From Eubacterium limosum (GTDB taxonomy: Bacteria; Bacillota; Clostridia; Eubacteriales; Eubacteriaceae): a stretch of 64,000 bases of DNA. Positions 6,421 through 62,673 of this stretch are shown here, piece after piece. Both the position numbers and the translations under genes were made by a program. Location of the stretch: NCBI RefSeq assembly GCF_000807675.2, contig NZ_CP019962.1, forward strand, positions 2,356,001 to 2,420,000. Direction: 5' to 3'. The notes under the pieces were generated by a model. That model was not told the DNA's origin. It saw nothing but the letters and a program-made list of their open reading frames with translations, and ran no database searches. Every line of letters starts with the position of its first letter. Positions within the stretch are counted from its first letter, which is position 1.

Positions 6421-6447
6421 TTAAAAAAGCCGGACATAAGCCCGGCT
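6421..6447 (-). terminator. Terminator of the mgtA2-mgtC operon
   Basis: AGCCGG (6428-6433) pairs with CCGGCT (6442-6447). The minus-strand product ends in a T-run. The hairpin overlaps the mgtC stop codon. Confidence 0.75.
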
Positions 6448-7129
6448 ACTGAACCTGCTCCCACTTGGCGGAAACCTTGTCCTCATTTTTCAGGCAGCTC
6501 GTGGTGATCTGCTCAATGACAGGGATGGGGTTCCGGTAAAAGCAGGTGTATTCTGCGATGATCTCGATGCGGCCGCCGGGCAGGTCGTTGCTGTCCAGGC
6601 TCACCAGGTACATTTTCCGGTTCCGCACCGCGTTGATGAGGTAGCTGCGCAGGCGGCCCTCATACCGCTCGTCGCACACAACGGATACAGTGTAGCGGTT
6701 GTCCGTCTCAGAGAAATTGACCAGTGGGTAGATCCGCCTGGCCACCGGGCGGGAGAGGATATTGGCCGCTATGAGGATCAGCGCTGCCACCAGGGCGAAA
6801 AGGATCCTGCCGGTTGCCGAGAAGCAGCCCACCGCCGCAGTGCACCAGAGTGTGGCGGCAGTGTTGAGCCCCTTGACGTTTCCGCCCTCCTTGAAGATGA
6901 CGCCGCTGCATAAAAAACCGACCCCCGAGATAATGTAGCTCTCGATACGGCCGATGTCGGAGTAAAGCTCGATCACCATGGGAAGCTGTAAAAACAGGCA
7001 GGTTCCCAGGCAGATAAGAATATTGGTCCGGATGCCGGCAGGGTGCCCGGTGAACTGGCGCTCCAGTCCAATGATAAAGCCGAGCAGCAGCGCGACGCCA
7101 AGGCGGAATACAAAATCATAGATGTTCAT
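6446..7129 (-). CDS. mgtC: MgtC/SapB family membrane protein
   Basis: The 227-aa protein begins with the conserved FRLGVALLLGFIIGLERQ segment. It carries four predicted membrane helices in the first 125 residues, including IISGVGFLCSGVIFKEGGNV, the MgtC signature. A soluble C-terminal domain of about 90 residues follows, as in the longer MgtC proteins. MgtC proteins act under magnesium limitation and modulate ATP synthase or phosphate uptake in studied bacteria. It is the last gene of the operon headed by the DUF3784 gene, 42 bp after the small membrane gene, and ends in a terminator. Confidence 0.88.
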   Translation of the reverse strand: MNIYDFVFRLGVALLLGFIIGLERQFTGHPAGIRTNILICLGTCLFLQLPMVIELYSDIGRIESYIISGVGFLCSGVIFKEGGNVKGLNTAATLWCTAAVGCFSATGRILFALVAALILIAANILSRPVARRIYPLVNFSETDNRYTVSVVCDERYEGRLRSYLINAVRNRKMYLVSLDSNDLPGGRIEIIAEYTCFYRNPIPVIEQITTSCLKNEDKVSAKWEQVQ

Positions 7130-7171
7130 CGTGACACCCCCTTCGGTTTGTTATTTCAGAAAGCCGCAGGC

Positions 7172-7366
7172 TTATTGCGGCCGGCTGTGGGCGCGGGCCT
7201 GCGCGGCAGACTGCACCGCCTGTTTTTGAGGCTTAAGGCCCCAGAGCACTGCGTTCATTACAACCACAGCCAGCAGGCAGACCAGCATGGCGGCCCAAAA
7301 GCCGAGGTTGACGCCCAGCAGCTCCGTAGTGTTAAAAAGGCTTAACCAAAGCATATTAAAGTTCAT
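7172..7366 (-). CDS. Small single-span membrane protein of the magnesium operon
   Basis: About 64 aa. One hydrophobic helix (GFWAAMLVCLLAVVVMNAVLW) is followed by a basic, Gln/Ala-rich tail. Three ATG codons overlap at 7364-7372; the one at 7366 has the best spacing (7 bases) to AGGAG. It lies 18 bp after the second mgtA gene and before mgtC. I do not recognise a family. Its position recalls small peptides such as MgtR or MgtS that tune magnesium transporters, but there is no sequence evidence for that role. Confidence 0.65.
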   Translation of the reverse strand: MNFNMLWLSLFNTTELLGVNLGFWAAMLVCLLAVVVMNAVLWGLKPQKQAVQSAAQARAHSRPQ

Positions 7367-7384
7367 CATCATACTCCTTTCGTT

Positions 7385-10147
7385 TTAGAGAAGGTCCCCG
7401 AAATGCCGTACATAAGCTTTTTTCACACTGGTGGCAAGGCACATGTACAGGATAATGCATGGGGCCAGGTAGGCAAAATAGAGGGACGGCAGCGGCATGA
7501 AGCCCAGGCTCACGCCAAAAGCGGTAAAGGGCAGGGCTGTAACCACCCCGCACCCGATAAAGGTGAGCAGGGTAAGGCCCGCGGAGGCCCGGCTCTGGAT
7601 AAAGGGCAGCTTGTCGGTGCGGATCATATGGATGACCATGGTCTGGCTCCACATGGATTCCACAAACCAGCCGGCCTGGAACAGCGCCGTATAGCTTATC
7701 TGCATCTGGGCCAGCTCGGCGCCGGAGAAGTGGGCCGCCAGGTCATTGTACAGGACGCCGCCAGATATGAACATGGGGCAGAACACAAAGTACATGACGG
7801 CATAGGTGGTCCAGTCGAAGATGGAGCTTGTGGGTCCGAGCCAGAGCATAAAGCTGCCCACCGATGAGGCGTCCCAGTTGCGGGGCCGCTTCAGAAAGTC
7901 CTCGTCCACGTTGTCCCAGGGGATGGCGGTGCAGGTCAGGTCATAGATCAGGTTTAAAAAGATCAGCTGCGCGCTCTGCATGGGTAAAAAGGGCAGCAGG
8001 GCAGAGGCGGCCAGCACTGAGAACATATTTCCAAAGTTTGAGGAGGCCGTCATCTTAATGTACTTGTTCATGTTGGCGTAGGTTTTGCGCCCCTCGATAA
8101 TGCCCTGCTCCAGGATCATCAGGTCCTTTTCAAGGAGGATAATGTCCGCGGATTCCTTGGCAATGTCCACCGCGCTGTCCACAGAGATACCGACGTCGGC
8201 CGATTTCATGGCCGCCGCGTCATTGATGCCGTCACCCATAAAGCCGACCGTATGGCCCTTTTCGCGCAGCACTGTGACAATGCGGGCCTTCTGGTCGGGT
8301 GAGAGCTTGGCGAACACATCGGTGCGCTCCGCCATCTTTGCCAGGGTGAAATCATCCATTTTGTCAATGTCGGAGCCCAGGAGCAGGTTGTTGATCTTAA
8401 GGCCCACCTGGCGGCAGATAAACTGGGTAACCTTTTCGTTGTCCCCGGTCAGAATCTTGGTGGTCACACCGTATTCCCGCAGCGCCTTAATGGCCGCGAA
8501 GGCAGATTCTTTCGGCGGGTCCAGAAAGGCAAGGTAGCCCATGAGCACCATGCCGCACTCGTCCTTCACGCCAAAGGTGCCCACCGGCGACGGGTTTGTC
8601 TTCTGGGCGACAGCGATGACCCGCATGCCGTCGTTGTTGTAGGCGTCGACGGTCTTCAGGATATTTTCCCGGATTTCGTCGGTCAGCGGCTCGACCCTGC
8701 CCCTGTACTCCGCAAAGGCGCAGATCGAGAGCATTTCCTCCACCGCCCCCTTGGTGACCATCTGGGTCTTGCCGTTTTTGTCGCTGACCACAGTGGAAAG
8801 GCGGCGGCGGGTGAAATCAAAAGGGATTTCATCCACCTTGGTGTAGGTTTCGGACAGGTCCGTCAGCCTTGGGTCAGAGGCTTCCTCCTCCTCGGTCTTG
8901 CGGATAATGGCGTGATCCATCAGGTTTTTATACCCTGTCTGGAAATAGCTGTTGAGGTAGGCGTGGCGGAGCACCCGGTTGTCCTTATTGCCCATCACGT
9001 CCAGAGAATACTCCAGCACCACGCGTTCCTGGGTCAGGGTGCCGGTCTTGTCGGTGCAGAGAATATCCATGGCCCCGAAGTTCTGGATGGCGTTCAGGTT
9101 TTTGACAATGGTTTTTTTCTTGGACATGGACACCGCGCCCTTGGCCAGGCAGGTGGTGACGATCATGGGCAGCATTTCCGGGGTCAGCCCGACAGCGATG
9201 GAAATGCCGAAGAGGAAAGCCTCCAGCCAGTCGCCCTTGGTCAGCCCGTTGATGACAAAGACTACGGGTACCATGACAAACATAAAGCGGATAAGCACCC
9301 AGGAGATGGCGTTGACGCCCTTGGTAAAGCTTGTTTCCACAGCTTCCCCCGCCACAGAGGAAGCCATGGAGCCAAAGAGCGTGTCGTCGCCCACAGAGAT
9401 GATGACCGCGGTGGCGCTGCCACTGATGACATTGCTGCCCATAAAGACAATGTTCGTATAATCGGTGACGGTGCCAGCTGTGCCGTCGCAGGCAAGTGGG
9501 GTTTTTTCGGTGGGTTCGCTTTCGCCGGTCAGGGCCGCCTGGCTGACGAACAGATCCTTGGCGTGGATAATCCGCGCGTCCGCGGGGATCATGTCGCCGG
9601 CGGAGAGGTGGATGATGTCCCCGACGACGGCCTCGTCCAGAGGGATCTCCTGGGTGGCGCCGCCCTCGCGGTCAACGGTGCAGGTGGTTGTGATCATGCC
9701 CAGCAGCTTTTCGGCCGCGCTGCCGGAGCGGGATTCCTGAAAAAAGCGCAGGGTTCCTGAGATCAGAACCATGGTCAGAATAATGACGACAGTCTGCAGG
9801 CTGAAGTCATCCGGTGAATTCTGGATAAGCGGCAGAATAATGTCGGTGATCGCGGACACAAAGGCAAGGCAGAATAAAATGGCAGTAAAGGGATTAATGA
9901 AGGCTTCCGCCAGCCTTCTCGGCAGTGTTTTCTTCTTTTCATGGGTGACTTTGTTGTTACCATAGGCGCTGCGGCTGGCGGTTACATCCTTTTCCGTCAG
10001 GCCCCCCAGCGTGGTATTGAATTTTTTTAAAACCGCAGGGATTTTGCTGGCCGCCGCAAAATGGATGACTGCGCTGGCCTGTTCTCTGCGGGCAGCGCTG
10101 TCAATTCTCTTTTTTACAGCTCCGTTGTTTTTTTGAATCCTGTTCAT
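7385..10147 (-). CDS. mgtA: Magnesium-translocating P-type ATPase (MgtA family), copy 2
   Basis: The 920-aa protein is a diverged paralogue of the neighbouring ATPase. It carries TGES near residue 205, DKTGT near 364 and [10 protein letters not shown] near 636, followed by [20 protein letters not shown] as in P3B magnesium importers. The extra length is an N-terminal extension rich in Lys, Arg and Ala before the first helices. The start has a clean AGGAGG. It is the second gene of a four-gene operon (DUF3784, mgtA, small membrane gene, mgtC). Two different ATPases under two promoters suggest different magnesium thresholds (inference). Confidence 0.92.
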
Positions 10148-10936: not shown

Positions 10937-10965
10937 TTGACAGCCGCCGGGTTCCGTGTTATATT
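10937..10965 (+). promoter_or_regulatory. Promoter of the fluoride-switch mutS-like operon
   Basis: TTGACA (10937-10942), a 17-bp spacer and TATATT (10960-10965) form a near-consensus vegetative promoter just upstream of the aptamer. Confidence 0.85.
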
Positions 10966-10970
10966 ATAGG

Positions 10971-11014
10971 CAGGTGATGGAGTTCACCTTGACCGCGTAA
11001 GCTGATGACTCCTG
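10971..11014 (+). ncRNA. Fluoride riboswitch (crcB motif) 1
   Basis: The RNA has the stem GGTG/CACC enclosing ATGGAGTT, then GACCGC, a small loop and the conserved CTGATGACTCC. GGAGT in the first loop pairs with ACTCC at the end as the pseudoknot. This order of elements is the crcB motif consensus. An intrinsic terminator follows (11011-11046) that would compete with the last pairing, as in fluoride ON switches. Established knowledge: crcB motifs are reported upstream of mutS-like genes in other bacteria. Confidence 0.88.
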
Positions 11015-11046
11015 TAAATTCTGAGAGGATTTGCAGGGGTTTTTTT
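11011..11046 (+). terminator. Riboswitch-controlled terminator
   Basis: An 11-bp stem (11011-11021 with 11027-11037, one G-U pair) is followed by TTTTTTT. Its 5' arm starts in the last aptamer bases. Confidence 0.85.
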
Positions 11047-11084
11047 ATTGCTCCTTTTATCCTCAGCAAAAAGGAGTAATGACA

Positions 11085-12596
11085 ATGAATACCAGTATTT
11101 TATGGCCAACGCCCCAGGACGAAGTGTCCGCTATGCCAGATTATTTTGTGGATCTGAACCTTGACCAGCTGCTTGAGCGCATGATAGGGGCAGAGGATCG
11201 CTGCCGCCTGCGCCCGCTGTATTACACGCTGTGCGGCGACAGGGAGGCGGTCGCCTACCGCCAGGCCGCTTTTCGGGACTGTATGAGGCCGGAAATAAAG
11301 GCCGCGTCCGACCAGTTTACAGAGCAGATGGCGGAAGTACGAAGACAGTTAAAGCTGGCCCGGAGTTTGTCGGACACCTGGAACCAGCGGGGATGGTTTT
11401 TTGAGGCGGCAGCGCTCTACTGTGAGGCGGTTGAGGGCCTGAGCGGCGTGTTTCAGGCCTCTGCCCTGGACTCGACCGCCCTCACAGGCCTGCGGCGCTG
11501 GCTGGCCGCCTATGCCCAGAGCCGGCGCTTTGTCTGCATGAAGTCGGAAATAGCCGTAGTGAGGGAGGCGCTTGGAAAAGTATATCTGCGGCTTAATATT
11601 AACGGGACCACCATCCGTGTGGGAAAGGGCAAGGCGGAGCCAGAGGATTATGGCGCGGTGGTCGGGCAGTGTTTTGAAAAGCTTTCGGAAAGCCCCTATG
11701 ACCCGTCGGAAATGCGCTTTCGTGTCAGTGCGCGCTTAAACCATATCGAGCGCGCGATTCTTGGACAGGCGGTGGACGATTACCCCGAAGCCTTTGGCGC
11801 CCTGGGGGCGTTTTGCGGGGCGTATCCGGATTTTCTGGAGGCGGAAGTTTTGGGCTTCGAGCGTGAATACTGTTTTTTACAGGCCTATCTCCGCTATATC
11901 AAACCCCTTGAGGACAGCGGCTTGCCCTTCTGTGTGCCGGAAGTAGCCAGAGGCGGCGGTCTGGCGGTCAGAGATGCCTTTGATCTGGTGCTCGCAAAAA
12001 AGAGCGGGGGACGGGGCATAGTGGTCAACAGCTGTGTAACCCGGCCAGGGGAGCGTATTCTGGTGGTTTCAGGCCCCAATCAGGGCGGAAAAACCACCTT
12101 TGCCCGGATGCTTGGCCAGCTGTGCTGTCTGGCGGCCCTGGGATTGCCAGTCCCCGGGGCATCGGCAGCGCTCTTTCTGCCGTCGCGGATATTCACCCAC
12201 TTTGAGCGCGGTGAGGACAGCCGCGGCCAAAACGGGAAGCTTCAGGACGACCTGCTCCGTGTCCATGCCATCCTGGCCCAGGCAGACGCCCACAGCCTGG
12301 TCCTCCTGAATGAAATTTTCACCTCCACTGCGCTGAAGGACGGACTGGCCCTTGGCCGGAAAGTCTTTGCGCGGCTCCAGGCCCTGGGGGCGTATTGTGT
12401 CTGCGTAACCTTTATGACCGAGCTGTCCAAATACAGCAAGACAACAGCCAGCTTTGTGAGCACCCTCGACGCCGGAACAGCGGAGCGGTCCTTTAAAATC
12501 CTGCGCAGGCCGGCGGACGGGCAGTCCTATGCCCAGGCTCTCGTAAGGAAATACTGCCTGCGGGAGGCAGACATCAAAAGGCGGGTGAGCTCATGA
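11085..12596 (+). CDS. MutS-like ATPase, first of a tandem pair
   Basis: 503 aa from the ATG at 11085, 8 bases after AGGAG; an ATG six bases earlier is too close. The C-terminal MutS ATPase domain has Walker A GPNQGGKTT near residue 329 and the Walker B region LVLLNEIF near 405, with Asn where MutS usually has Asp. The N-terminal mismatch-recognition domain of true MutS is missing; the first 320 residues look like the helical lever and clamp domains. The gene overlaps the next by four bases (ATGA). It lies directly downstream of a fluoride riboswitch. Role is unknown; DNA-structure binding is the family expectation. Confidence 0.85.
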   Translation: MNTSILWPTPQDEVSAMPDYFVDLNLDQLLERMIGAEDRCRLRPLYYTLCGDREAVAYRQAAFRDCMRPEIKAASDQFTEQMAEVRRQLKLARSLSDTWNQRGWFFEAAALYCEAVEGLSGVFQASALDSTALTGLRRWLAAYAQSRRFVCMKSEIAVVREALGKVYLRLNINGTTIRVGKGKAEPEDYGAVVGQCFEKLSESPYDPSEMRFRVSARLNHIERAILGQAVDDYPEAFGALGAFCGAYPDFLEAEVLGFEREYCFLQAYLRYIKPLEDSGLPFCVPEVARGGGLAVRDAFDLVLAKKSGGRGIVVNSCVTRPGERILVVSGPNQGGKTTFARMLGQLCCLAALGLPVPGASAALFLPSRIFTHFERGEDSRGQNGKLQDDLLRVHAILAQADAHSLVLLNEIFTSTALKDGLALGRKVFARLQALGAYCVCVTFMTELSKYSKTTASFVSTLDAGTAERSFKILRRPADGQSYAQALVRKYCLREADIKRRVSS

Positions 12597-14128
12597 AGCC
12601 CCACATGCTGTACCCCGATCAGGACCTGCTGGTCCAGAAAAATCTGAAGGCCCACCAGGAGGCGCTCATAAAGGATCTGGGACTGGAAACCCTTTTGGAG
12701 GTTATGGCCCAGGACGATCTGGACCGGTGGCACACAGCCAGGTGGGTGCTGCTGAACAGCGAAAAAGATGTGCAGGTGCTGCGTTACCGGCAGGCTGTTC
12801 TGAAAGACTGCCTTGAGCAGCCTGAGGCCTTTCGCGCGCTCTACAGCATCGCCCGGGACGCAGTCCGCGAGCGGCGGGGTATCTACCTTTCCTTTTTCAG
12901 TGAGCTGGAAAGGCCCAGCGCGTCATTGTCCAGCGCTTCAGACTATCTGGATAAAGCCCTGGACCGGACCAGGGAGCTCAGGCTGCTGGCAGAGGAAAAA
13001 GGAGAAAGCTTTCATTCGGAGGGCTTCAGGCAGCTTTTCGCCCAGGTCTCTGACCGTGTGCCGGAGACAGCCTACACAGAGATGAAAGCACACCTGGCCG
13101 GTCTCTCTTTTCCCAGAGGTCTGACAGCCAACGCAGGTGTCGGCCCGGGCGGCCCGCTGTCCGGGTATACCCTGCTCAAGCCTGAACGCCCAGCCGGCAG
13201 CCCGTTCAGGCACTGGCTTCACAGGGACAGGGAGCTGGTGATCCATGTGGACCCAAGGGACATGTCCGGCCTGGCGACACTGACAGCCCTCAAGGATCAG
13301 AGCAGCGCCCGGGCCGCCGTGGCCATTGTCAGGAGTGCCCGGACGCTGTCCCGTTTTTATGAACAGCTTTTGACAGAGCTGGACTTTTACATGGCCGGAT
13401 TAGCCCTGTATGAGGTTCTGGTGGACGTGGGCGCTCCCACAGCTTTTCCGGTGATAAGGCCGGCTGTGGACTGCGCCCGGAGCTACAGCGGTCTTTATGA
13501 TATTGGCCTTGCCCTTATACGGGGCGCGGAAGTGGTGGGCAACACACTGATCGAGGACGGCGCTGCCCTCACCGTTGTCACCGGAGCCAACCAGGGCGGG
13601 AAATCTACCTTTCTCAGAAGTCTTGGACTGGCACAGCTCATGCTGCAATGCGGCCTTTTTGTGCCGGCCGAGGCCTTTGAGGCCAGCCTGTGCGATGGAA
13701 TTTTTACCCATTTCAGACGGCCCGAGGATCGCGGAATGGATAGCGGAAAGCTGGAGGAGGAGCTTAAGCGCATGAATGACATAGTCAGCCAGCTAAGGCC
13801 AGCCTCCCTGGTGCTTCTCAATGAGTCTTTTTCAGCCACCAATGAGAGCGAGGGCTCAGAGATCGCAGAGCAGATCACCCTGGCGCTGCTGGCAGCCGGG
13901 GTGCGTGTGGTGTTCGTTACCCATTTTTACCGTTTTTCCCAGGAGCTTTTTGATCTGGAGCGCCCGGATATCCTGTTTTTGAGGGCAGAACGCCAGGATA
14001 ACGGCAGCCGGACCTTTAAAATAAAGACCGGAGCGCCGCAGCCTGTCAGCTTTGGCATGGACTTATACCGTCAGATATTTAAGGAGGACACAAGTGATAC
14101 AACCGAACGACCTATGGACAATGCTTGA
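12593..14128 (+). CDS. MutS-like ATPase, second of a tandem pair
   Basis: The 511-aa protein has the same architecture as its upstream neighbour: lever/clamp-like N-terminal part, Walker A GANQGGKST near residue 330 and Walker B variant LVLLNESF near 408. A HFYRFSQELF segment follows at the position of the MutS dimer region. Like its partner it lacks the mismatch-recognition domain and has Asn for Asp in Walker B. The start overlaps the stop of the first gene. Its end overlaps the start of the GTPase gene by 35 bases, so the three are translationally coupled. A heterodimer of the two MutS-like proteins is plausible (inference). Confidence 0.85.
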   Translation: MKPHMLYPDQDLLVQKNLKAHQEALIKDLGLETLLEVMAQDDLDRWHTARWVLLNSEKDVQVLRYRQAVLKDCLEQPEAFRALYSIARDAVRERRGIYLSFFSELERPSASLSSASDYLDKALDRTRELRLLAEEKGESFHSEGFRQLFAQVSDRVPETAYTEMKAHLAGLSFPRGLTANAGVGPGGPLSGYTLLKPERPAGSPFRHWLHRDRELVIHVDPRDMSGLATLTALKDQSSARAAVAIVRSARTLSRFYEQLLTELDFYMAGLALYEVLVDVGAPTAFPVIRPAVDCARSYSGLYDIGLALIRGAEVVGNTLIEDGAALTVVTGANQGGKSTFLRSLGLAQLMLQCGLFVPAEAFEASLCDGIFTHFRRPEDRGMDSGKLEEELKRMNDIVSQLRPASLVLLNESFSATNESEGSEIAEQITLALLAAGVRVVFVTHFYRFSQELFDLERPDILFLRAERQDNGSRTFKIKTGAPQPVSFGMDLYRQIFKEDTSDTTERPMDNA

Positions 14129-15860
14129 CGCTGCCCTGCCGCTGCTGAGAGAGAACCCGCTCTGCGGCCAGGAGGCCCGTCAGCTTGAAAATTTGAGAAA
14201 GCGGCTTGCGGAAAACCAGCTTGTTTTAGCTGTTTTCGGACAGTTTAAGCGCGGCAAAAGTACCTTCATCAACCAGCTGCTCGGCGCGCCCGTGCTGCCC
14301 ACAGGCATTGTACCCGTCACCTCGGTGGTGACCCAGCTGTTCTATAAAGAGCAGGCCGGGGCAGAAGTAAGCTATGAAAAGGCAGCTTCCGAAAAAATTC
14401 CGCTGAAGGCGGTCAAGGCCTTTGTGGATGAGGGTGAAAACCCCGAGAATTACCGTCAGGTAACAGGCGTAGCCATCGGCTACCCCGCGGATTTTTTGAA
14501 AAGTGGGGTGGTTCTGGTCGATACACCGGGGGTCGGCTCCCTGCACCGGGGCAATACCGACATGGCGTCTGGCTTTACCGGAAAAACAGACGCGGCGATT
14601 TTTATGCTGTCTGTGGACAGCCCCATCAACGAGATTGAGTGCCGATTTATTAAACAGCTGCAAAAGGACCAGGTACGGCTTTACTTCGCAGTGAATAAAA
14701 CCGATACTATCAGCGGGGAAGATCTCCGGCGCTATCTGGATTACTGCCAGGCCCAGCTGGAGAAGCTCATGGGCGGACAGGAGAGCGCCATATACCCCAT
14801 CAGCGCGGCCACGCCGGAAGATGAGGGTATACAGCGGCTGATGAACCGGATATTTGAGGATTTTGAGAGAATGGGCACACACCTTTTGGCAGACTCTGTA
14901 GCCCGCAAAGCCGCCAGGGCTTTAATAACCGCAGAGCATAAGCTGGCCCTTTCACAGTCAGCCTATGAGATGCCCCTTGAACAGCTCCAGGCCATTTCGG
15001 AAAACCTGCAAAGCACAAAACAGAAGGCCCGGCGCATGGCCGACGAGGCCGTTTACCTTATGCAGATGGCCAGCGACCAGCTGATCAGTGACCTTGAGGC
15101 CCAATTAAACCGCCGCAGGCCCGAAGCGCTCAGGACTCTGGGTGCTGTACTGGACGACCTCAACGGCAGGAGCGGCGACCTGCCGCCAAAAGCCTTTGAC
15201 AAGGCCCTGCGCTCGGCGGTCGAGCGGGAGGTGTCCGCGGCAGTCGCCTGCGCCGGGGAGGAGAACCTTGCCAGAATGCGGGCAGACTACGAAGCGGCCG
15301 CCAACAGCTTCAGCCAGGCCCTTCAGGAAATAACCCGCACCCTTTACCGGGAGATCAGCGCCTGCTTTCAGGCAGCGGAGATATTTACCGCTGAGGCCCA
15401 TACCCTGTCAGCCGCCAGCGACCTCCGTTTTGAGGTGTTTCCCTACCAGGCGGAGTTGGCCCTGAGTCCAGACCGCCTGGTGTTTTTACTGCCGCCTAAA
15501 AGGGCGCGGGCACGGTTGCTTAAGCAGGCACAGACCGCGGCAGAGGAGAGCCTGAAACGCGGCTTTACCAGCCTTTTAAGCGATAACCGCTACCGGCTGA
15601 GGGAGAGCCAGCGCCAGTTTGGTAAACAGTTCCAGGAAGAGGTCGGCGCTGTGGAGGACGCCCTGGACGCCTTTATGGCCAAAACCCTTGTACAGAGAGC
15701 CGAGGTGAAAGCATCGACAGACGACACCGTCAGCGTCCTGGAAAGGCAGCGCGCTGTGCTGATGGATTACAGCCGTCAGATCGAAACAGCCCTTGACAAA
15801 AAAGCCGCCGCCGGAGCAGAGAGGCGCAAGCCCATACAGGAAAAAAGCTCTGGAATTTAA
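14094..15860 (+). CDS. Dynamin-family GTPase
   Basis: 588 aa from GTG at 14094, which follows AAGGAGG by 6 bases; an upstream ATG in the same frame has no binding site. G1 is GQFKRGKS (about residue 49), G2 the PVTSV threonine, G3 DTPGVGS near 142 and G4 NKTD near 201. The remaining 350 residues are helical with a hydrophobic stretch (FEVFPYQAELALSPDRLVFLLP) about two thirds along, the layout of bacterial dynamin-like proteins. Such proteins remodel or protect membranes. It is the third gene of the fluoride-switch operon. Confidence 0.85.
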   Translation: MIQPNDLWTMLDAALPLLRENPLCGQEARQLENLRKRLAENQLVLAVFGQFKRGKSTFINQLLGAPVLPTGIVPVTSVVTQLFYKEQAGAEVSYEKAASEKIPLKAVKAFVDEGENPENYRQVTGVAIGYPADFLKSGVVLVDTPGVGSLHRGNTDMASGFTGKTDAAIFMLSVDSPINEIECRFIKQLQKDQVRLYFAVNKTDTISGEDLRRYLDYCQAQLEKLMGGQESAIYPISAATPEDEGIQRLMNRIFEDFERMGTHLLADSVARKAARALITAEHKLALSQSAYEMPLEQLQAISENLQSTKQKARRMADEAVYLMQMASDQLISDLEAQLNRRRPEALRTLGAVLDDLNGRSGDLPPKAFDKALRSAVEREVSAAVACAGEENLARMRADYEAAANSFSQALQEITRTLYREISACFQAAEIFTAEAHTLSAASDLRFEVFPYQAELALSPDRLVFLLPPKRARARLLKQAQTAAEESLKRGFTSLLSDNRYRLRESQRQFGKQFQEEVGAVEDALDAFMAKTLVQRAEVKASTDDTVSVLERQRAVLMDYSRQIETALDKKAAAGAERRKPIQEKSSGI

Positions 15861-16211: not shown

Positions 16212-16230
16212 AAATCCAAAAAGAACGACA

Positions 16231-16282
16231 AGGGAATGAAGTTTCCCGTGGATTTCCAAAAACGCGCAGGCTGATAACTTCT
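16231..16282 (+). ncRNA. Fluoride riboswitch (crcB motif) 3
   Basis: GGGA/TCCC encloses ATGAAGTT, then AACGC and CTGATAACTTCT. GAAGT pairs with ACTTC, again covarying relative to copies 1 and 2. A weak hairpin and TTTTTTTATTG (16304-16314) follow before the gene at 16334, which suits transcription attenuation. Confidence 0.8.
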
Positions 16283-16333
16283 ACATCAATGGGGGTTGTC
16301 CGCTTTTTTTATTGCGAGAAAGAAGGGACATTT

Positions 16334-16702
16334 ATGCTTACACGGCCAAAGTATTCAAAAAACAAGGGAATTGTCCGCCTGTCCGGACAGCTTCGTCCCG
16401 GCTCCGGCTTCTGCCTTTTGCCTGTGAGCCCAGGAAAATGCCGGTGTGCTATCCAGGTTCTGGAGGGCGATGTGCGGCTGAACCACGCAGTCTTTAACCC
16501 GGACGGCGGCGCCTGGAGCGCACCGGCGCCAAACAATAAACACGTGCATTACACCTGCCATGCGGGAGAGCACTGTGAGATCGATCTGGAAATCGGGTAC
16601 AGCTTTGGCAGGGCCGACCATGTAAATCTTGAGAACCTCCATCTCCTGCACCCGGCTGTGGTGGCCTATTCGCTGGAAAAAGTGGAAACACAGCCCAGAT
16701 AA
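16334..16702 (+). CDS. Uncharacterised 122-aa protein under fluoride riboswitch 3
   Basis: ATG at 16334 follows GAAGGGA by 5 bases; the frame is open further upstream but passes through the leader and terminator. The protein is beta-rich with two Cys near the middle (GKCRCAIQV) and His/Cys residues in HVHYTCHAGEHCEID. The spacing of HVHYTCHAGEHCE could suit metal binding or a cupin-like barrel. I do not recognise a family. It is the only gene in its unit and is preceded by its own promoter and aptamer, so a part in fluoride response is inferred. Confidence 0.6.
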   Translation: MLTRPKYSKNKGIVRLSGQLRPGSGFCLLPVSPGKCRCAIQVLEGDVRLNHAVFNPDGGAWSAPAPNNKHVHYTCHAGEHCEIDLEIGYSFGRADHVNLENLHLLHPAVVAYSLEKVETQPR

Positions 16703-16835: not shown

Positions 16836-16937
16836 GCATTAAAGTGGTAAAGCTACCAAAATAAATAATGGTTTCCGGGACACATGTCAATCAACCGGCA
16901 CACAGACGCTCAATGGGCGCTGTGTGCCGGTTTTTTT
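16836..16937 (+). ncRNA. Structured leader RNA with strong terminator, possible riboswitch of unknown class
   Basis: A hairpin GGTA-AAGC-TACC lies inside a CATT/AATG pairing (16836-16870) and is followed by GGTTTCCGGGACA. A strong terminator follows: CCGGCACACAG (16895-16905) with CTGTGTGCCGG (16920-16930) and seven T. The CCGG upstream of the terminator can compete with its 5' arm, an attenuator design. It lacks the CTGAT-R-CTYC end of the fluoride motif. It faintly recalls the mepA (guanidine-IV) motif from memory, which I could not verify. Confidence 0.45.
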
Positions 16938-16974
16938 ATTGGCCTGCGGCGCCCGGGAGTCCCGGGGAGAAAAA

Positions 16975-17533
16975 TATGCTCATATCTAAAGCACAGCTTA
17001 TTGTGAAAGGGGAGACCGGCGGCGAGGGACATGAAGCCCGGCAGCTCCTGAAGATTGTTTACGAGGAGATGCCGGACTGCCCGCGGTGCAGCGCGCCTAT
17101 GAGTGTGCGCGACCACTTCTGGCGCGTGCTTATCGGTATGGACGGCGTCCGGAGGGAGATGCGGCCGCGCCGTCTGGTCTGCACCTGCGAGACCTGCGAG
17201 CTGCACACACGCCCGCAGCGCAACCTGCCCCAGGGTGTTGTGCCCAGACGCCAATACAGCGCGGAGGTGCACCAGGCCATTGCCGAGGGCCGCCGCGATG
17301 TGCCCTGCGCTGACAACACCATTCACCGCATTTACAGATGGCTCCTCGGCCTGGCCGCTTTTGTGCTGTCCTGCGGGCTTTTTATGCCGGATTGTGAAAA
17401 CGTTAACGAAGTGGCTGGCAGGACGGAGAGTCCCCTGGAGCGTCTGAGAAATATAGCCGGAGGCGGTGAAAATTGGCTTGCCCGGGTGGTGGGAAGGGCC
17501 GCCGGCCGGGGCGGGGGTTTGCACTGGGTTTAG
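16975..17533 (+). CDS. DUF6431-like zinc-binding protein
   Basis: About 185 aa from ATG 16975. CPRC near residue 37 and CTCETC near 72 form a probable zinc ribbon. The segment RRQYSAEVHQAI after it is typical of DUF6431 proteins, which resemble the DNA-binding part of some transposases. The C-terminal 40 residues are low-complexity Gly/Arg and may be a degenerate extension. Transcription comes through the attenuated leader upstream. It stands at the left edge of a phage-like cassette (Rha, replication protein), so a mobile-element origin is likely. Confidence 0.6.
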
Positions 17534-17612
17534 GATGTGATTGACATAGGAATAGGGTAAACTCACGGTATCATCTCAAAAAGATGAAATTTCTGATGCT
17601 TGAGGAGGTACA

Positions 17613-18425
17613 ATGATGAAAACCCAAAACAAAGGTCCGGAGACATCCCGCGGCCTTGTTCATTGTGCAGAAAATTCAAAAACGGACAAAATGATTGAAG
17701 TCACCCTGTGGAAAAACCGCCCGGTGGTAGGGAGCCGGCAGATAGCCCGGGACTTTGAGCGGGCCCACAAGAGCGTGCTGAGGCGTATCACCCTGCTGAG
17801 GCGGGAGACATCGGCACAAAATTGCGCCGATCTTTTTATGAGCTCCACTTATGTTGACCAGTACGGAAGAACACAGAAGGAATACCTCGTCACCCGGGAC
17901 GGCTTCGCCCTGCTGGTCATGGGCTTTACCGGCGCCCAGGCCCTCTCATGGAAGCTCCGGTACATCCAGGCCTTTAACGCCATGGAGGAACAGCTCTGCC
18001 GGCAGGCCCTTTCCATGCCCCAGGATAAGGCCCTGCTGGCCGCCGCGGTGCTGGAGGCCGAGAAGGTCATCGCCGGGCTGCAGGCAGAGGCCGACTACGC
18101 GAAGCGCGTCCTCGACAGCCAGGCGCTCATCCCCATCACCGGCATCGCCAAAGATTACGGCATGACCGCGGATTTTATGAACCGCCTGCTCCACAGTCTG
18201 GGCGTCCAGTTCAAAAAGGGGAAGCGCTGGTATTTGTACGAGGCCTGGCAGGACGCAGGCTACGCGGCCACCAACACCGACACCATCCGCAAAAAAGACG
18301 GCAGCGTCAAGGTGGTGGAGAGCCTGCAGTGGACCCAGAAGGGCAAACGCTTTATCCGCGGTCTGCTGGCCGAAAACAACATCTACCCTGTACTGGAGCG
18401 TGGCAGCCATGAACTTTGTGACTGA
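17613..18425 (+). CDS. Rha family phage regulator with KilAC domain
   Basis: The 270-aa protein has an N-terminal Rha domain (about residues 32-125) with KSVLRRI, the YLVTRDGFALLVMGFTG signature and WKLRYIQAFNAME. A C-terminal KilA-C/ANT domain follows (LIPITGIAKDYGMTADFMNRLL to WTQKGKRFIRGLL). Such proteins act as antirepressors or early regulators in temperate phages. It is more GC-rich than the paralogue at 23,945 in the adjoining prophage. Ribosome binding site GAGGAGG. The gene overlaps the next one by 26 bases. Confidence 0.85.
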   Translation: MMKTQNKGPETSRGLVHCAENSKTDKMIEVTLWKNRPVVGSRQIARDFERAHKSVLRRITLLRRETSAQNCADLFMSSTYVDQYGRTQKEYLVTRDGFALLVMGFTGAQALSWKLRYIQAFNAMEEQLCRQALSMPQDKALLAAAVLEAEKVIAGLQAEADYAKRVLDSQALIPITGIAKDYGMTADFMNRLLHSLGVQFKKGKRWYLYEAWQDAGYAATNTDTIRKKDGSVKVVESLQWTQKGKRFIRGLLAENNIYPVLERGSHELCD

Positions 18426-19068
18426 GTTTTTAGGCTTCATGGCCTGGCTCATGGCCCGGCCGCGCAGGTCCTTAGAGATCCTGGGCCTCTGGGTGTACCT
18501 TTTTATAAAAAACAACGCCGCCGCCGTCCAGGACGAGGACGGCAGCTGGTACTGGCCCGTATGGTTCGAGGTGGACAGCAGCGCGCTGCGCGCCTTCATG
18601 GACGGAATCTCCTCGAAACGCCTCTGGGAACTCCGGCAGGAGCTTATCCGGTATTCCCGGCTGGAATACCAGAAGGCTTCCGGCGGCCACCCCGCCCGCT
18701 ACGCCCTGATTCCCTTCGACACAGGGCTGCGGCAGGTTCGCCTGAGTTCCGCAGCCCATTCCGGCAGCAGTTTCTTCTGGAAGCCCGCCGCGGAATGCAG
18801 TGGAAACCCGGCGGGATTCCAACCGGAACGCCCTCGGGAACAAAACCGGTTTTCTTCTGATTCAGATATAAATAATAAATATATAAACACAAAGAGTATT
18901 CCAGGGTATGCGGACACCAACCCCAACGGCTTCAACATTCCGCCAAAACTCACTGAGGAGGAAGAGCGCCAGCTCGAGGCAGCGTATCCCGACCCGGTCG
19001 AGCGCTTCTGGGCAGGCATGGCCCTCAGGGATCAAAAGGCAGAGGAGGAGAAAGCATGGGAATTTTAA
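18400..19068 (+). CDS. Phage replication-type winged-helix protein
   Basis: 222 aa from GTG 18400 (an ATG lies three codons later). Residues 25-100 contain NNAAAVQDEDGSWYWPVWF and SKRLWELRQELIRYSRLEYQ, the winged-helix pattern of phage replisome organizers, similar in layout to the protein at 28,136. The C-terminal third is charged and may contact helicase-loading factors. The gene is part of the GC-rich cassette with Rha and an XRE regulator. It is weakly conserved, so confidence in exact function is limited. Confidence 0.55.
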   Translation: MAAMNFVTEFLGFMAWLMARPRRSLEILGLWVYLFIKNNAAAVQDEDGSWYWPVWFEVDSSALRAFMDGISSKRLWELRQELIRYSRLEYQKASGGHPARYALIPFDTGLRQVRLSSAAHSGSSFFWKPAAECSGNPAGFQPERPREQNRFSSDSDINNKYINTKSIPGYADTNPNGFNIPPKLTEEEERQLEAAYPDPVERFWAGMALRDQKAEEEKAWEF

Positions 19069-19277
19069 AGGACAGCTACGCCGATCTCTACGGCGAGCGC
19101 TTTTACGAAGCGCCGGGCTACACCGCCTATGAATGTATGGCCGAGGGCACCCTGCGCTGCACCATAAGAGCCCACACCCTGGAGGAGGCCGAGAACCGGT
19201 TTGCCGAAGTCCTCGACGAGGCGGAGGACAACCACCCCGGCCTTACCCTGCGCCAGCAGTGGGTGGCGGAAACGTGA
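19056..19277 (+). CDS. Small acidic phage-like protein
   Basis: 73 aa, overlapping the previous gene by 13 bases and the next by four (GTGA). The sequence is acidic with an amphipathic helix TLEEAENRFAEVLDEAED. No family recognised. Tight overlaps on both sides support translation within the cassette. Confidence 0.5.
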   Translation: MGILKDSYADLYGERFYEAPGYTAYECMAEGTLRCTIRAHTLEEAENRFAEVLDEAEDNHPGLTLRQQWVAET

Positions 19278-19519
19278 CCGCCGCCTTTGCCCGCTGGCTG
19301 CGGGAGAGCCGCAGCGCCAGAGGGCTGACCCAGCAGGCCCTGGCCGAGGCGGCCGGCCTCAGCCATAAGACCGTTTTCCGGGCAGAGCGGGGCGAGGCCG
19401 TGAGCGCCTACAGCCGGGAACAGCTGACTGCCTGCCTGGGCAGCCCGCCCCCGGAAACCGCTGACCAAATGGGCCAGAGTGGACACTTTATACTGTCCAT
19501 ATACCGGGAGCTGCTGTGA
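19274..19519 (+). CDS. XRE-type helix-turn-helix protein
   Basis: 81 aa from GTG 19274, overlapping the upstream stop as GTGA. Residues 5-45 read ARWLRESRSARGLTQQALAE followed by AAGLSHKTVFRAERGE, a standard XRE helix-turn-helix with conserved LTQQALAEAAG and F-R-AERGE. It probably controls the cassette. No dimerisation domain is obvious in the short C-terminus. Confidence 0.7.
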   Translation: MTAAFARWLRESRSARGLTQQALAEAAGLSHKTVFRAERGEAVSAYSREQLTACLGSPPPETADQMGQSGHFILSIYRELL

Positions 19520-19559
19520 TGGTAAACTTAAACCAGAAAAACGAAAGGAGGAACACCCC

Positions 19560-19652
19560 ATGGCCTATGAACGCATCAAAACCAAGCACGAGCTCAAGAT
19601 GAACCTGAACTACGGCGAGATCGGCGGGAATGTCAGTTATAAAATTAACTAA
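19560..19652 (+). CDS. Small ORF interrupted by the prophage left end
   Basis: ATG 19560 follows AAAGGAGG by 7 bases. The frame runs 30 codons and ends with TAA at 19650-19652, just past the attL core. If the prophage is removed using the TAAAATT core, the frame continues from ATT into GTTGAAACCCGC on the far side and ends after 36 codons. The peptide starts MAYERIKTKHELKMNL. No family recognised. It appears to be the phage integration target. Confidence 0.5.
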   Translation: MAYERIKTKHELKMNLNYGEIGGNVSYKIN

Positions 19653-19672
19653 ACTAAAAAAAACGGCCATTT
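19624..19672. other. attL, left prophage boundary
   Basis: Core TAAAATT at 19640-19646. Host side carries GCGGG at 19624-19628, which mirrors CCCGC at 55287-55291 on the other side. Joining the two host halves gives a symmetric empty site, as expected for serine-integrase attB. Confidence 0.65.
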
Positions 19673-19685
19673 TTAGCCGTTTTGG
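19653..19685 (-). terminator. Terminator of the recombinase gene
   Basis: AAAACGGC (19665-19672) and GCCGTTTT (19676-19683) form a stem, with T-runs in the minus-strand sense. Confidence 0.65.
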
Positions 19686-21073
19686 AAGTTAAATATAATG
19701 GTGACGTCGTCGTCATTGATTTCGATTCGTTTGATGATCGAACGAATTAGTGCTTTTTTCTGTTTTATGTCTCCGGTTTCAAGAATTATATCAACAGAAT
19801 CGAATATCTCTTTGTAATCTTCATAAGACTGAACAACTGGTTTTCTCAATTTGGAAAGATCGTCTTCAAGTTTTTTCTTTTTCTCATATAATGCATTTAT
19901 TTTTTTATTCAGTTTATCCAGTGGTAATTTATCCAGTGTATAAAGATCCATCAGCTTTTCGACCTGTTGGTCGCACTCAGATATCTCTTTGTCAAGACGG
20001 GTCAGATTATTAATGTTACTATCGGCAGCGGGATTGCTCAGTTCCTCAAAATACTGCCGATCGAAAGATAATCGTTTGATCGTATCTATAATCATACTAT
20101 CCAATTTATGTGTTGGCCAGCTTTTTGACTTACACTTTTTCTTAAATTCGCTGCCTGGCTTCTTTCGATTAGGGCAGCAACAGTAATAAGAGTATTGAAC
20201 CCCATTGCACTTTGTTGACCGAACGCCGTATCGTTCACCGCATTTAGCACACCAGAGAATTCCGGTTAATAGATACCGGGTTTGTTTCCCTTGCCACCGT
20301 GTTTTTGTCTGGATCAGGACCTGCGCTTGCTCAAATACGGCATCGCTGAGAATGGGGTCGTGCAGACCATCAAGGACTTCACCATTAAAGTTTACTTTGC
20401 CAATGTAGACAGGGTTTTTAAGTATTTGTATCACCGAGGTGATGGCGTGCCAAGCTAGTGCACCGGGATATTTCTTTGTCATGATTCGACTGATTTCGGA
20501 GTAGCTAGCCCCCTTCAACCAATAATCAAAAATTTCACGGACAATTGCGGCTTGGGATTCGTTAATGACTAACCCTTTTTCTTTGCGATCATATCCAAAA
20601 GGCAGTCCACCATGGATCAGACCGGATCGGACTCTTGCTTCCATTCCGCTGTGCATTCGCTCAAGAATCTGCTCCCGTTCAAGCTGGGCGAAAACGGATA
20701 GAATCCCGACCATGGCCCGGCCAAAGCTGGTTCCGGTGTCGAAGCTCTCGTTTACGGAGACATAATCAACGTGGCAGGGGAGAAAGATATCTTCAATAAG
20801 GTGCAGGGTATCTTTTTGGCTTCGGGATAGCCTGTCGAGTTTCAAGGACACGACTACGTCCAAATTCCCAGCCTTGGTATCCGTAATCATCTTTTGCATG
20901 GCCGGCCGGTCTAGTTTAGCGCCAGAGAAACCGCCGTCAATATATTCTTCGGCTACCGCCCAATCATGGCTCTGGCAGTAAGCTTCAAGGCGGCGTTTCT
21001 GTTCTGGAATCGAATAATTGTCCACTTGTTCTTCTGTACTTACGCGGATATAAAGACCCGCTCTCTTTTTCAT
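19673..21073 (-). CDS. int: Large serine recombinase (phage integrase)
   Basis: The 466-aa protein has a resolvase domain (about 4-150) with the catalytic serine in YIRVSTEEQ (Ser12) and SLKLDRLSRSQKD. A recombinase domain (about 160-260, with GLPFGYDRKEKGL) follows. Then comes a zinc ribbon (CAKCGERYG to YYCCCPN) and a coiled coil (about 345-420). This is the layout of large serine integrases that join attP and attB unidirectionally. It starts with AGGAGG at 21,08x and is the leftmost prophage gene, next to attL. Its promoter region is a near-perfect inverted repeat shared with an opposing small RNA. Confidence 0.93.
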   Translation of the reverse strand: MKKRAGLYIRVSTEEQVDNYSIPEQKRRLEAYCQSHDWAVAEEYIDGGFSGAKLDRPAMQKMITDTKAGNLDVVVSLKLDRLSRSQKDTLHLIEDIFLPCHVDYVSVNESFDTGTSFGRAMVGILSVFAQLEREQILERMHSGMEARVRSGLIHGGLPFGYDRKEKGLVINESQAAIVREIFDYWLKGASYSEISRIMTKKYPGALAWHAITSVIQILKNPVYIGKVNFNGEVLDGLHDPILSDAVFEQAQVLIQTKTRWQGKQTRYLLTGILWCAKCGERYGVRSTKCNGVQYSYYCCCPNRKKPGSEFKKKCKSKSWPTHKLDSMIIDTIKRLSFDRQYFEELSNPAADSNINNLTRLDKEISECDQQVEKLMDLYTLDKLPLDKLNKKINALYEKKKKLEDDLSKLRKPVVQSYEDYKEIFDSVDIILETGDIKQKKALIRSIIKRIEINDDDVTIIFNFQNG

Positions 21074-62360: not shown

Positions 62361-62411
62361 TTGCACAATTCGGGGATTTGTGCTAAACTTCAATTAATAA
62401 CTTAATGATGC

Positions 62412-62560
62412 TGTTTTGTTAGAGGAAAGCGGTTGAAATCCGCTACAGCCCCCGCTACTGTAATTGCAGACAAGATCCTCATAGACCACTGTCAGGCGTA
62501 TCCTGATGGGAAGGGAGGATGGAGAAGGAAGCAAGAGTCAGGACACTTGAAGCAAAGCGA
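62412..62560 (+). ncRNA. Cobalamin riboswitch
   Basis: GAGGAAAGCGGTTGAAATCC followed by CAGCCCCCGCTACTGT is the conserved core. It is followed by ACCACTGTCAGGC, GATGGGAAGGGAGGATGG and GAAGCAAGAGTCAGGACAC (B12-box region). A hairpin AGAGGATT/AATCCGGCCTCT follows (62,583-62,613). It should repress the corrinoid import genes when B12 is plentiful. Confidence 0.93.
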
Positions 62561-62673
62561 TATAATCACTTCGGAGGGAAGTAGAGGATTGTATATTTTC
62601 ATAATCCGGCCTCTCTCGTGGGGTCGGTTTTCTTTGTTTTAAGCCGTTTTAAATTTATTTTATGGAGGGACCA

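What the first reader, a model, noticed from the sequence alone, without database searches (positions are those of the whole stretch)
10937..15860. Fluoride-switched operon of two MutS-like ATPases and a dynamin-like GTPase
A consensus promoter, a textbook crcB-motif aptamer and a terminator precede three overlapping genes. The two MutS-like proteins are paralogues without mismatch-recognition domains, both with Asn in place of the Walker B Asp (LVLLNE). The third gene is a dynamin-type GTPase. Established knowledge: fluoride riboswitches are reported upstream of mutS-like genes. The triple association, with a membrane-remodelling GTPase, is to me undescribed and suggests a fluoride or anion stress system linking chromosome and membrane. 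No CrcB or EriC fluoride exporter is visible in the window.
Basis: partly seen in the sequence, partly recalled or inferred. Interest (0 to 1): 0.78.

Follow-up and report, generated by a model that had tools for sequence, protein, structure and literature searches.

The report
Fluoride-switched MutS-like pair and dynamin
A fluoride-sensing RNA switch sits in front of two stripped-down MutS-like motor proteins and a membrane-shaping dynamin, and the same fluoride-linked set recurs in very different bacteria, which points to a little-known part of the bacterial defence against fluoride.

Summary
A fluoride riboswitch (RF01734, 48.1 bits) with promoter and overlapping terminator precedes three overlapping genes: two MutS-like ATPases (A, B) and a BDLP/IniA-type dynamin (DLP).

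The linkage is conserved. Among 398 genomes sampled from the phylum, the A/B pair occurs in 20, the DLP in 39, both in 12 (Fisher p 6e-8 without the own genome), within 5 kb in 9 of the 12. Of 20 sampled pair loci, 17 carry a fluoride riboswitch upstream of A. The DLP also has its own riboswitch away from MutS: directly upstream in 9 of 9 family relatives and in 13 of 29 DLP loci of the sample. None of 118 ordinary MutS-type genes in 61 relatives lies within 30 kb of a fluoride riboswitch.

A and B keep only the lever/clamp/ATPase core. The Walker B Asp is Asn in 62 of 63 A and 78 of 79 B. By domain content they are not mismatch-repair proteins.

A fluoride riboswitch upstream of "mutS" was published in 2010. 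I found no report of the dynamin link, but the key 2012 paper was not readable here. Best reading: a fluoride damage-control module; its biochemical step is inferred.

The parts
10937..10965 (+). sigma-70-type promoter (TTGACA, 17 bp, TATATT)
   Evidence: read from the sequence; not tested
10964..11021 (+). fluoride riboswitch aptamer (RF01734)
   Evidence: 48.1 bits, cut-off 34, E 3e-10; own genome search 5e-12
11007..11046 (+). intrinsic terminator overlapping the aptamer 3' end (expression platform; implies an ON switch)
   Evidence: -20 kcal/mol, z -5.5
11085..12596 (+). MutS-like ATPase A (503 aa); Walker A GPNQGGKT, Walker B LVLLNE (Asn codon 12309-12311)
   Evidence: MutS_V 62.1 bits; alignments A2, A7; conservation
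12593..14128 (+). MutS-like ATPase B (511 aa); Walker A GANQGGKS, Walker B LVLLNE (Asn codon 13820-13822)
   Evidence: MutS_V 76.3 bits; AlphaFold pLDDT 86.5; fold of MutS/MutS2 core
14094..15860 (+). dynamin-like GTPase (588 aa, GTG start); G motifs GQFKRGKS, DTPG, NKTD
   Evidence: Dynamin_N 97.2 bits; motifs; PDB profile match BDLP 2.5e-42, IniA 8e-37; model pLDDT 82
16223..16290 (+). second fluoride riboswitch
   Evidence: 39 bits, cut-off 34, E 2.7e-07
16334..16702 (+). orphan 122-aa ORF behind the second riboswitch; relation to the module unknown
   Evidence: no Pfam/NCBIfam match up to E 0.1; found in 1 of 61 genomes, the own one

Best explanation
A fluoride-induced damage-control operon. 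Without fluoride the leader forms the terminator; fluoride stabilises the aptamer, whose 3' strand is shared with the terminator arm, and the operon is read through. A and B act as a paired (probably heterodimeric) clamp ATPase made of the MutS/MutS2 lever-clamp-ATPase core, without mismatch or MutL-binding domains. The most likely job is to pull apart or reactivate protein complexes jammed under fluoride stress, as MutS2 splits stalled ribosomes, rather than to repair DNA. The Walker B Asp-to-Asn change, at the residue that helps to hold Mg2+, is nearly fixed in both subunits. I read it as a retuned Mg site that is less easily trapped by NDP-metal-fluoride complexes. The dynamin (BDLP/IniA fold) is the membrane arm: it maintains or repairs the membrane while HF enters and acidifies the cell. 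Shown: aptamer, terminator overlap, gene order, conserved linkage, Asn signature, predicted folds. Inferred: heterodimer, client complexes, metal-fluoride resistance, membrane repair.
Against: No expression, growth or biochemical data. Eight of 20 sampled genomes with the pair lack the DLP and 27 of 39 with the DLP lack the pair, so the two are separable. Three of 20 sampled pair loci, 12 of 80 collection loci and 9 of 29 sampled DLP loci (1.5-kb flanks) show no fluoride riboswitch. The pair in relative G017 has neither riboswitch nor DLP on its 7.3-kb contig, and a base-excision-repair type gene (HhH-GPD, 52 bits) beside it, which fits DNA repair. Loss of the Walker B acid usually cripples P-loop NTPases, so A/B might be weak or dead ATPases. 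Ribosome- or membrane-binding parts are not identified: the DLP tip region (431-459) has pLDDT under 50.
Confidence: 0.45

Rival explanations
1. DNA repair under fluoride or acid stress, as the label mutS suggests: A/B bind damaged or branched DNA and the dynamin is a separate stress gene.
For: MutS fold; Weinberg 2010 lists mutS under DNA repair and suggests DNA-damaging stress (passage). In G017 the gene just upstream of the pair, co-directional, is of the HhH-GPD base excision repair superfamily.
Against: Only MutS_V matched among the MutS domains in 61 of 61 B and 32 of 32 A at E<=0.01. Walker B Asp is lost. That G017 pair has no fluoride riboswitch on its contig, so it may not be typical.
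Confidence: 0.15
2. Reactivase: A/B act like the pair KamB/KamC and free one fluoride-inhibited enzyme, for example enolase, of its inhibitor.
For: KamC is the best NCBIfam match of B (4e-22). An enolase cluster is among the commonest neighbours (20 of 83 loci; representative confirmed by Pfam) and sits in the same operon in 5 of 103 loci.
Against: KamC score is 78.6 against a cut-off of 300, and ordinary MutS/MutS2 genes score 205-237 on that model. Most loci have no enolase in the operon. What KamB/KamC do is taken from the family name and recall.
Confidence: 0.2
3. Ordinary co-regulation: unrelated stress genes collected under a common switch; A/B and the DLP do not work together.
For: DLP occurs without the pair in 27 of 39 genomes and often has its own riboswitch. 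Several other gene families share the islands.
Against: Co-occurrence and proximity far exceed chance, and in the window the two are translationally overlapped.
Confidence: 0.3
4. Anti-phage defence: dynamins such as LeoA/LeoBC act in defence, and phage genes lie nearby.
For: Weak PADLOC matches LeoA 50.5 bits and LeoBC 33.1 bits; phage-type genes from about 16.9 kb.
Against: Fluoride control and fluoride-gene neighbours recur in other genomes; whether phage-type genes recur there was not tested.
Confidence: 0.03

Closest known systems
Fluoride riboswitch (crcB motif, RF01734)
   Same: Aptamer, terminator overlap, position in the 5' leader; mutS reported downstream in 2010 (PMC2864571, passages)
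   Different: Controls a MutS-like pair plus a dynamin; I found no dynamin among reported targets
MutS2/RqcU (B. subtilis)
   Same: Lever-clamp-ATPase core fold; MutS2 too lacks the two N-terminal MutS domains
   Different: No Smr match in A or B, two paralogues instead of one protein, Walker B Asn
MutS (mismatch repair)
   Same: Fold of domains III-V
   Different: No domains I/II by Pfam, Asn at Walker B; E. coli D693N (PDB 3k0s, title seen) changes an Asp that I take, partly from recall, to be the same position
KamB/KamC (NF052383)
   Same: Small MutS-like ATPases, as a pair (the pairing with KamB is recalled); best NCBIfam for B
   Different: Far below the curated cut-off (78.6 of 300)
BDLP (Nostoc), IniA (mycobacteria), mitofusin
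   Same: GTPase plus long helical trunk; IniA and BDLP aligned over 506-512 residues
   Different: About 15-21% identity; fluoride-riboswitch control
Fluoride operon of Enterobacter cloacae FRM (ppaC-uspA-eno-gpmA-crcB)
   Same: Fluoride riboswitch; enolase, Usp, histidine-phosphatase-type (PGAM-like) and CrcB genes recur near our pair
   Different: Neither mutS nor dynamin is mentioned in that paper's main text (find)

Membership tests
Fluoride riboswitch RF01734 | Score above Rfam gathering cut-off | tested here: met
   48.1 vs 34 bits
Fluoride riboswitch RF01734 | Expression platform overlapping the aptamer | tested here: met
   terminator -20 kcal/mol using the aptamer 3' end
Fluoride riboswitch RF01734 | Fluoride binding and induction | not testable with these tools
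   needs in-line probing or a reporter
MutS mismatch repair | Mismatch-recognition domain I and connector domain II | tested here: not met
   No Pfam match to MutS_I or MutS_II at E<=0.01 in 61 B and 32 A. Proteins of about 500 aa; near-complete E. coli MutS chains align to B from about residue 168 on. A missing profile match alone is not proof of structural absence.
MutS mismatch repair | NCBIfam MutS equivalog cut-offs | tested here: not met
   A 74.1 and B 71.8 vs 480 bits
MutS/MutS2 ATPases | Walker B Asp-Glu | tested here: not met
   Asn-Glu in 62 of 63 A and 78 of 79 B; Asp in 34 of 34 readable controls of 37 tried
MutS2 | C-terminal KOW and Smr domains; TIGR01069 cut-off 400 | tested here: not met
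   no Smr match in Pfam; 55.7 (A) and 67.4 (B) bits
KamC | NF052383 cut-off 300 | tested here: not met
   A 37 and B 78.6 bits
Bacterial dynamin-like protein | Dynamin_N GTPase with G1/G3/G4 motifs | tested here: met
   97.2 vs 27 bits; GQFKRGKS, DTPG, NKTD
Bacterial dynamin-like protein | GTPase head, neck and helical trunk | tested here: met
   model and alignments to IniA and BDLP over 506-512 residues, at rmsd 9.5-10.6
Bacterial dynamin-like protein | Membrane-binding tip or paddle | tested here: inconclusive
   residues 431-459 pLDDT under 50
Fluoride-resistance module | Fluoride phenotype | not testable with these tools
   needs deletion strains

The most novel reading that the evidence does not exclude
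A fluoride-specific rescue machine: a MutS-like heterodimer whose Mg site is altered so that it keeps working in the presence of metal-fluoride nucleotide analogues strips NDP-metal-fluoride-locked complexes (ribosomal GTPases, membrane ATPases), and a co-induced dynamin, a GTPase family of its own among bacterial dynamins, reseals or remodels the membrane. This would be a layer of fluoride defence beyond export and enzyme replacement.
Probability: 0.2. Interest if true: 0.9.

Novelty: new variant of a known kind. Interest (0 to 1): 0.72.

Why it matters
Fluoride defence is usually told as export plus replacement of inhibited enzymes. Here a dynamin is a recurrent fluoride-riboswitch target, in its own right and beside the MutS-like pair, and the 'mutS' long listed under this riboswitch looks, where I could see it, like a paired core ATPase without mismatch-repair domains. 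Both points give direct tests: two protein families with unknown work now have a clear candidate inducer. A natural, family-wide Walker B Asn also offers a model for how P-loop ATPases might tolerate metal fluorides.

Tried and rejected
A-B fusion genes in L088 and L108 looked like proof of a heterodimer, but only the second half of each ORF matches and the first half is an out-of-frame extension: rejected. KamC membership: rejected by score. A neighbour cluster of 22 loci named dynamin was inflated by chaining; by profile 12 of 80 loci hold a DLP of 100 bits or more, plus fragments in L096 and L100. Defence system: weak matches only. A control for Walker B failed on ordinary MutS because of my pattern and was redone (3 of 37 still unread). 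The riboswitch control (0 hits in 44 loci) is weak for the MutS loci among them (L007-L033), since 1.5-kb flanks often do not reach the start of a long mutS gene; I therefore compared the genome-wide positions instead. The 122-aa protein: one partial match, 30 residues, in viral contigs. Of the 113 riboswitch hits, the 8 weakest (from 20.1 bits down) were left out of the table used. In one search, sequences under 380 or over 700 aa were left out. My first count of DLP loci with a direct riboswitch (12 of 20, note) was too high by one: L183 has it 0.8-1 kb upstream; recounted by script. Neighbour family names rest on one representative of each cluster. Riboswitch linkage labels in the tree were set by hand; the label needs 13 changes against 18.3 in shuffles (3 of 500 as low), so linkage is clustered but mixed, and long branches make deep order unsure.

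Not readable: the papers looked up as Baker 2012 (Science) and Breaker 2012 (Caries Res), titles recalled, are not held, so whether a dynamin stands in their gene tables is open.
Full report
What is in the window. Rfam scanning of all 64 kb gave two fluoride riboswitches and one cobalamin riboswitch above cut-off. The first fluoride aptamer (10964-11021, 48.1 bits) follows a consensus-like promoter and is followed by a strong terminator whose 5' arm uses the 3' end of the aptamer, the layout of a fluoride ON switch. Three genes follow: A (11085-12596), B (12593-14128) and a dynamin-like GTPase, DLP (14094-15860), each overlapping the next. Above its cut-offs Pfam sees MutS domain V alone in A and B, and Dynamin_N with general GTPase models in the third. 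The own genome (4.42 Mb, one contig, unnamed) has three fluoride riboswitches: the two in the window and one before a crcB gene. So an exporter exists, outside the window.

Relatives. Among 61 genomes (own plus 60), full-length B occurs in 3: own, G024, G017. In G024 the DLP and the A/B pair are divergent, each behind its own fluoride riboswitch, followed by two more fluoride riboswitches and two crcB genes (L063). In G017 the pair stands on a short contig without riboswitch or DLP, beside a HhH-GPD base-excision-repair type gene. The DLP occurs in 10 of the 61 (E<=1e-20): own and nine of one other genus. All nine of those have a fluoride riboswitch 84-120 bp upstream of the match on the same strand, although eight of them lack the pair. 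In five of the nine (G019, G022, G029, G032, G033) the divergent partner is a crcB pair. Those nine riboswitches were among the 35 used to build the search model R1, so the Rfam result is the independent one. Control: one search lists 124 MutS-type places; the 118 that are not A or B all lie over 30 kb from the 48 riboswitch hits or on other contigs (compared by eye; one search used strict filters).

Wider set. With the covariance model R1 and 105 of its 113 hits, 41 of 80 loci have a fluoride riboswitch within 600 bp of A, 7 within 3 kb, 11 elsewhere in the locus, 9 have too little upstream sequence and 12 have none. In two of the 11, L088 and L126, the ORF is overextended and the riboswitch is probably direct. 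A Rfam rescan of 9 of the 12 found one more fluoride riboswitch, in L108, not upstream of A. DLPs of 100 bits or more lie within the fetched flanks (8 kb or less) in 12 of 80.

DLP away from MutS. In 49 genomes with the pair (50 of the 80 loci given), the DLP profile finds 26 places at E<=1e-100, of which 20 came as loci. Recounted: 11 have a fluoride riboswitch within 360 bp upstream of the match on the same strand (9 of them above Rfam's cut-off; L174 and L184 only by R1), 3 have one about 1 kb upstream (L170, L171, L183), 3 lie in a riboswitch-MutS operon (L166, L167, L175), 3 have none (L172, L173, L185). Seven of the 20 (L178-L184) lie outside the fetched flanks of the pair: six direct, one at about 1 kb. 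Among ten weaker loci (L186-L195), L188 has a riboswitch upstream, L186 and L187 are partial genes without one, and L189-L195 have none (0 of 7).

Phylum sample. In 398 genomes drawn evenly from the phylum, the DLP (E<=1e-70) is in 39 and the pair (E<=1e-90) in 20, both in 12. Without the own genome: 11 of 19 against 27 of 378, odds ratio 17.9, p 6e-8, not corrected for shared ancestry. In 9 of the 12 the two lie within 5 kb (own, G225, G232, G286, G346, G413, G444, G473, G505); in 3 not (G191, G259, G370) (coordinates). Of 40 DLP places besides the own one, 29 came as loci: riboswitch direct 13, same strand within 1.5 kb 5, divergent only 2, none 9; 10 of the 13 pass Rfam's cut-off. For 20 pair loci from 19 genomes: pair adjacent 20 of 20, riboswitch upstream of A 17 of 20 (13 within 411 bp, 4 at 1.36-1.71 kb), DLP in 9 of 20. 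Two of these genomes (G413, G339) are also in the collection set.

Neighbours. In 83 loci the commonest clusters besides the DLP are enolase (20 loci), Usp (19), an MFS transporter (18), CrcB (10), a histidine-phosphatase-type protein (8) and a Na/H exchanger (8) (clusters of other kinds with similar counts were not named); one representative of each, and for CrcB three related proteins, was checked by Pfam. As co-directional operon neighbours in 103 loci: MFS 12, DLP 10, DUF190-CBS 8, CrcB 5, enolase 5.

Mechanism. The regulation is well supported by sequence. The work of the proteins is inference: a clamp ATPase on jammed complexes plus a membrane dynamin. PMC9599529 (passages) supports the Mg role of the Walker B acid and the use of NDP-fluoride complexes as transition-state mimics in P-loop NTPases. 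PMC10897456 (passages) reports that MutS2 splits ribosomes by its ATPase. PMC8844932 and PMC6104087 (abstract openings in the search listing) report that bacterial dynamins remodel or guard membranes. Rivals are DNA repair, a KamB/KamC-like reactivase (enolase is a frequent neighbour) and mere co-regulation.

Prior knowledge. Weinberg 2010 reported mutS under this RNA and filed it as DNA repair (passages); whether those mutS genes are this pair was not checked gene by gene. A 2024 review (PMC11139923, find in the main text) mentions neither MutS nor dynamin. Searches for fluoride, riboswitch and dynamin together gave 0 papers, 'fluoride riboswitch' with MutS 0, and two broader searches gave nothing on point in the rows listed (the latter lists 15 of 93). 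The library is open-licence only and the 2012 discovery paper could not be read, so 'undescribed' is limited to that.

Noticed in passing
window 16223-16702: Second fluoride riboswitch with its own promoter-like and terminator-like sequences before an orphan 122-aa ORF, found in none of 60 relatives.
   Followed up: partly
window 16868-21073: DUF6431 protein and Rha/KilAC-type phage antirepressor, then a protein that reads like a serine recombinase (by eye), right after that ORF: probably an integrated element that may have displaced the gene once under the second switch.
   Followed up: no
window 6446-10147 (-): MgtC-family protein and Mg-translocating P-type ATPase divergent from the operon; fluoride acts with Mg2+, but linkage elsewhere was not tested.
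   Followed up: no
L122 6722-7918 and similar: An MFS transporter family is the commonest co-directional operon neighbour of the pair, in 12 of 103 loci; possibly an unrecognised fluoride-island transporter.
   Followed up: no
L257: Two tandem A/B pairs, each behind a fluoride riboswitch; one B is split into two ORFs.
   Followed up: no
L143: Silvibacterium locus with three dynamin-like genes around one A/B pair.
   Followed up: no
L064 6330-6971: HhH-GPD base-excision-repair type gene directly upstream of the riboswitch-free A/B pair of G017.
   Followed up: partly
window 62374-62565: Cobalamin riboswitch, 77.5 bits.
   Followed up: no
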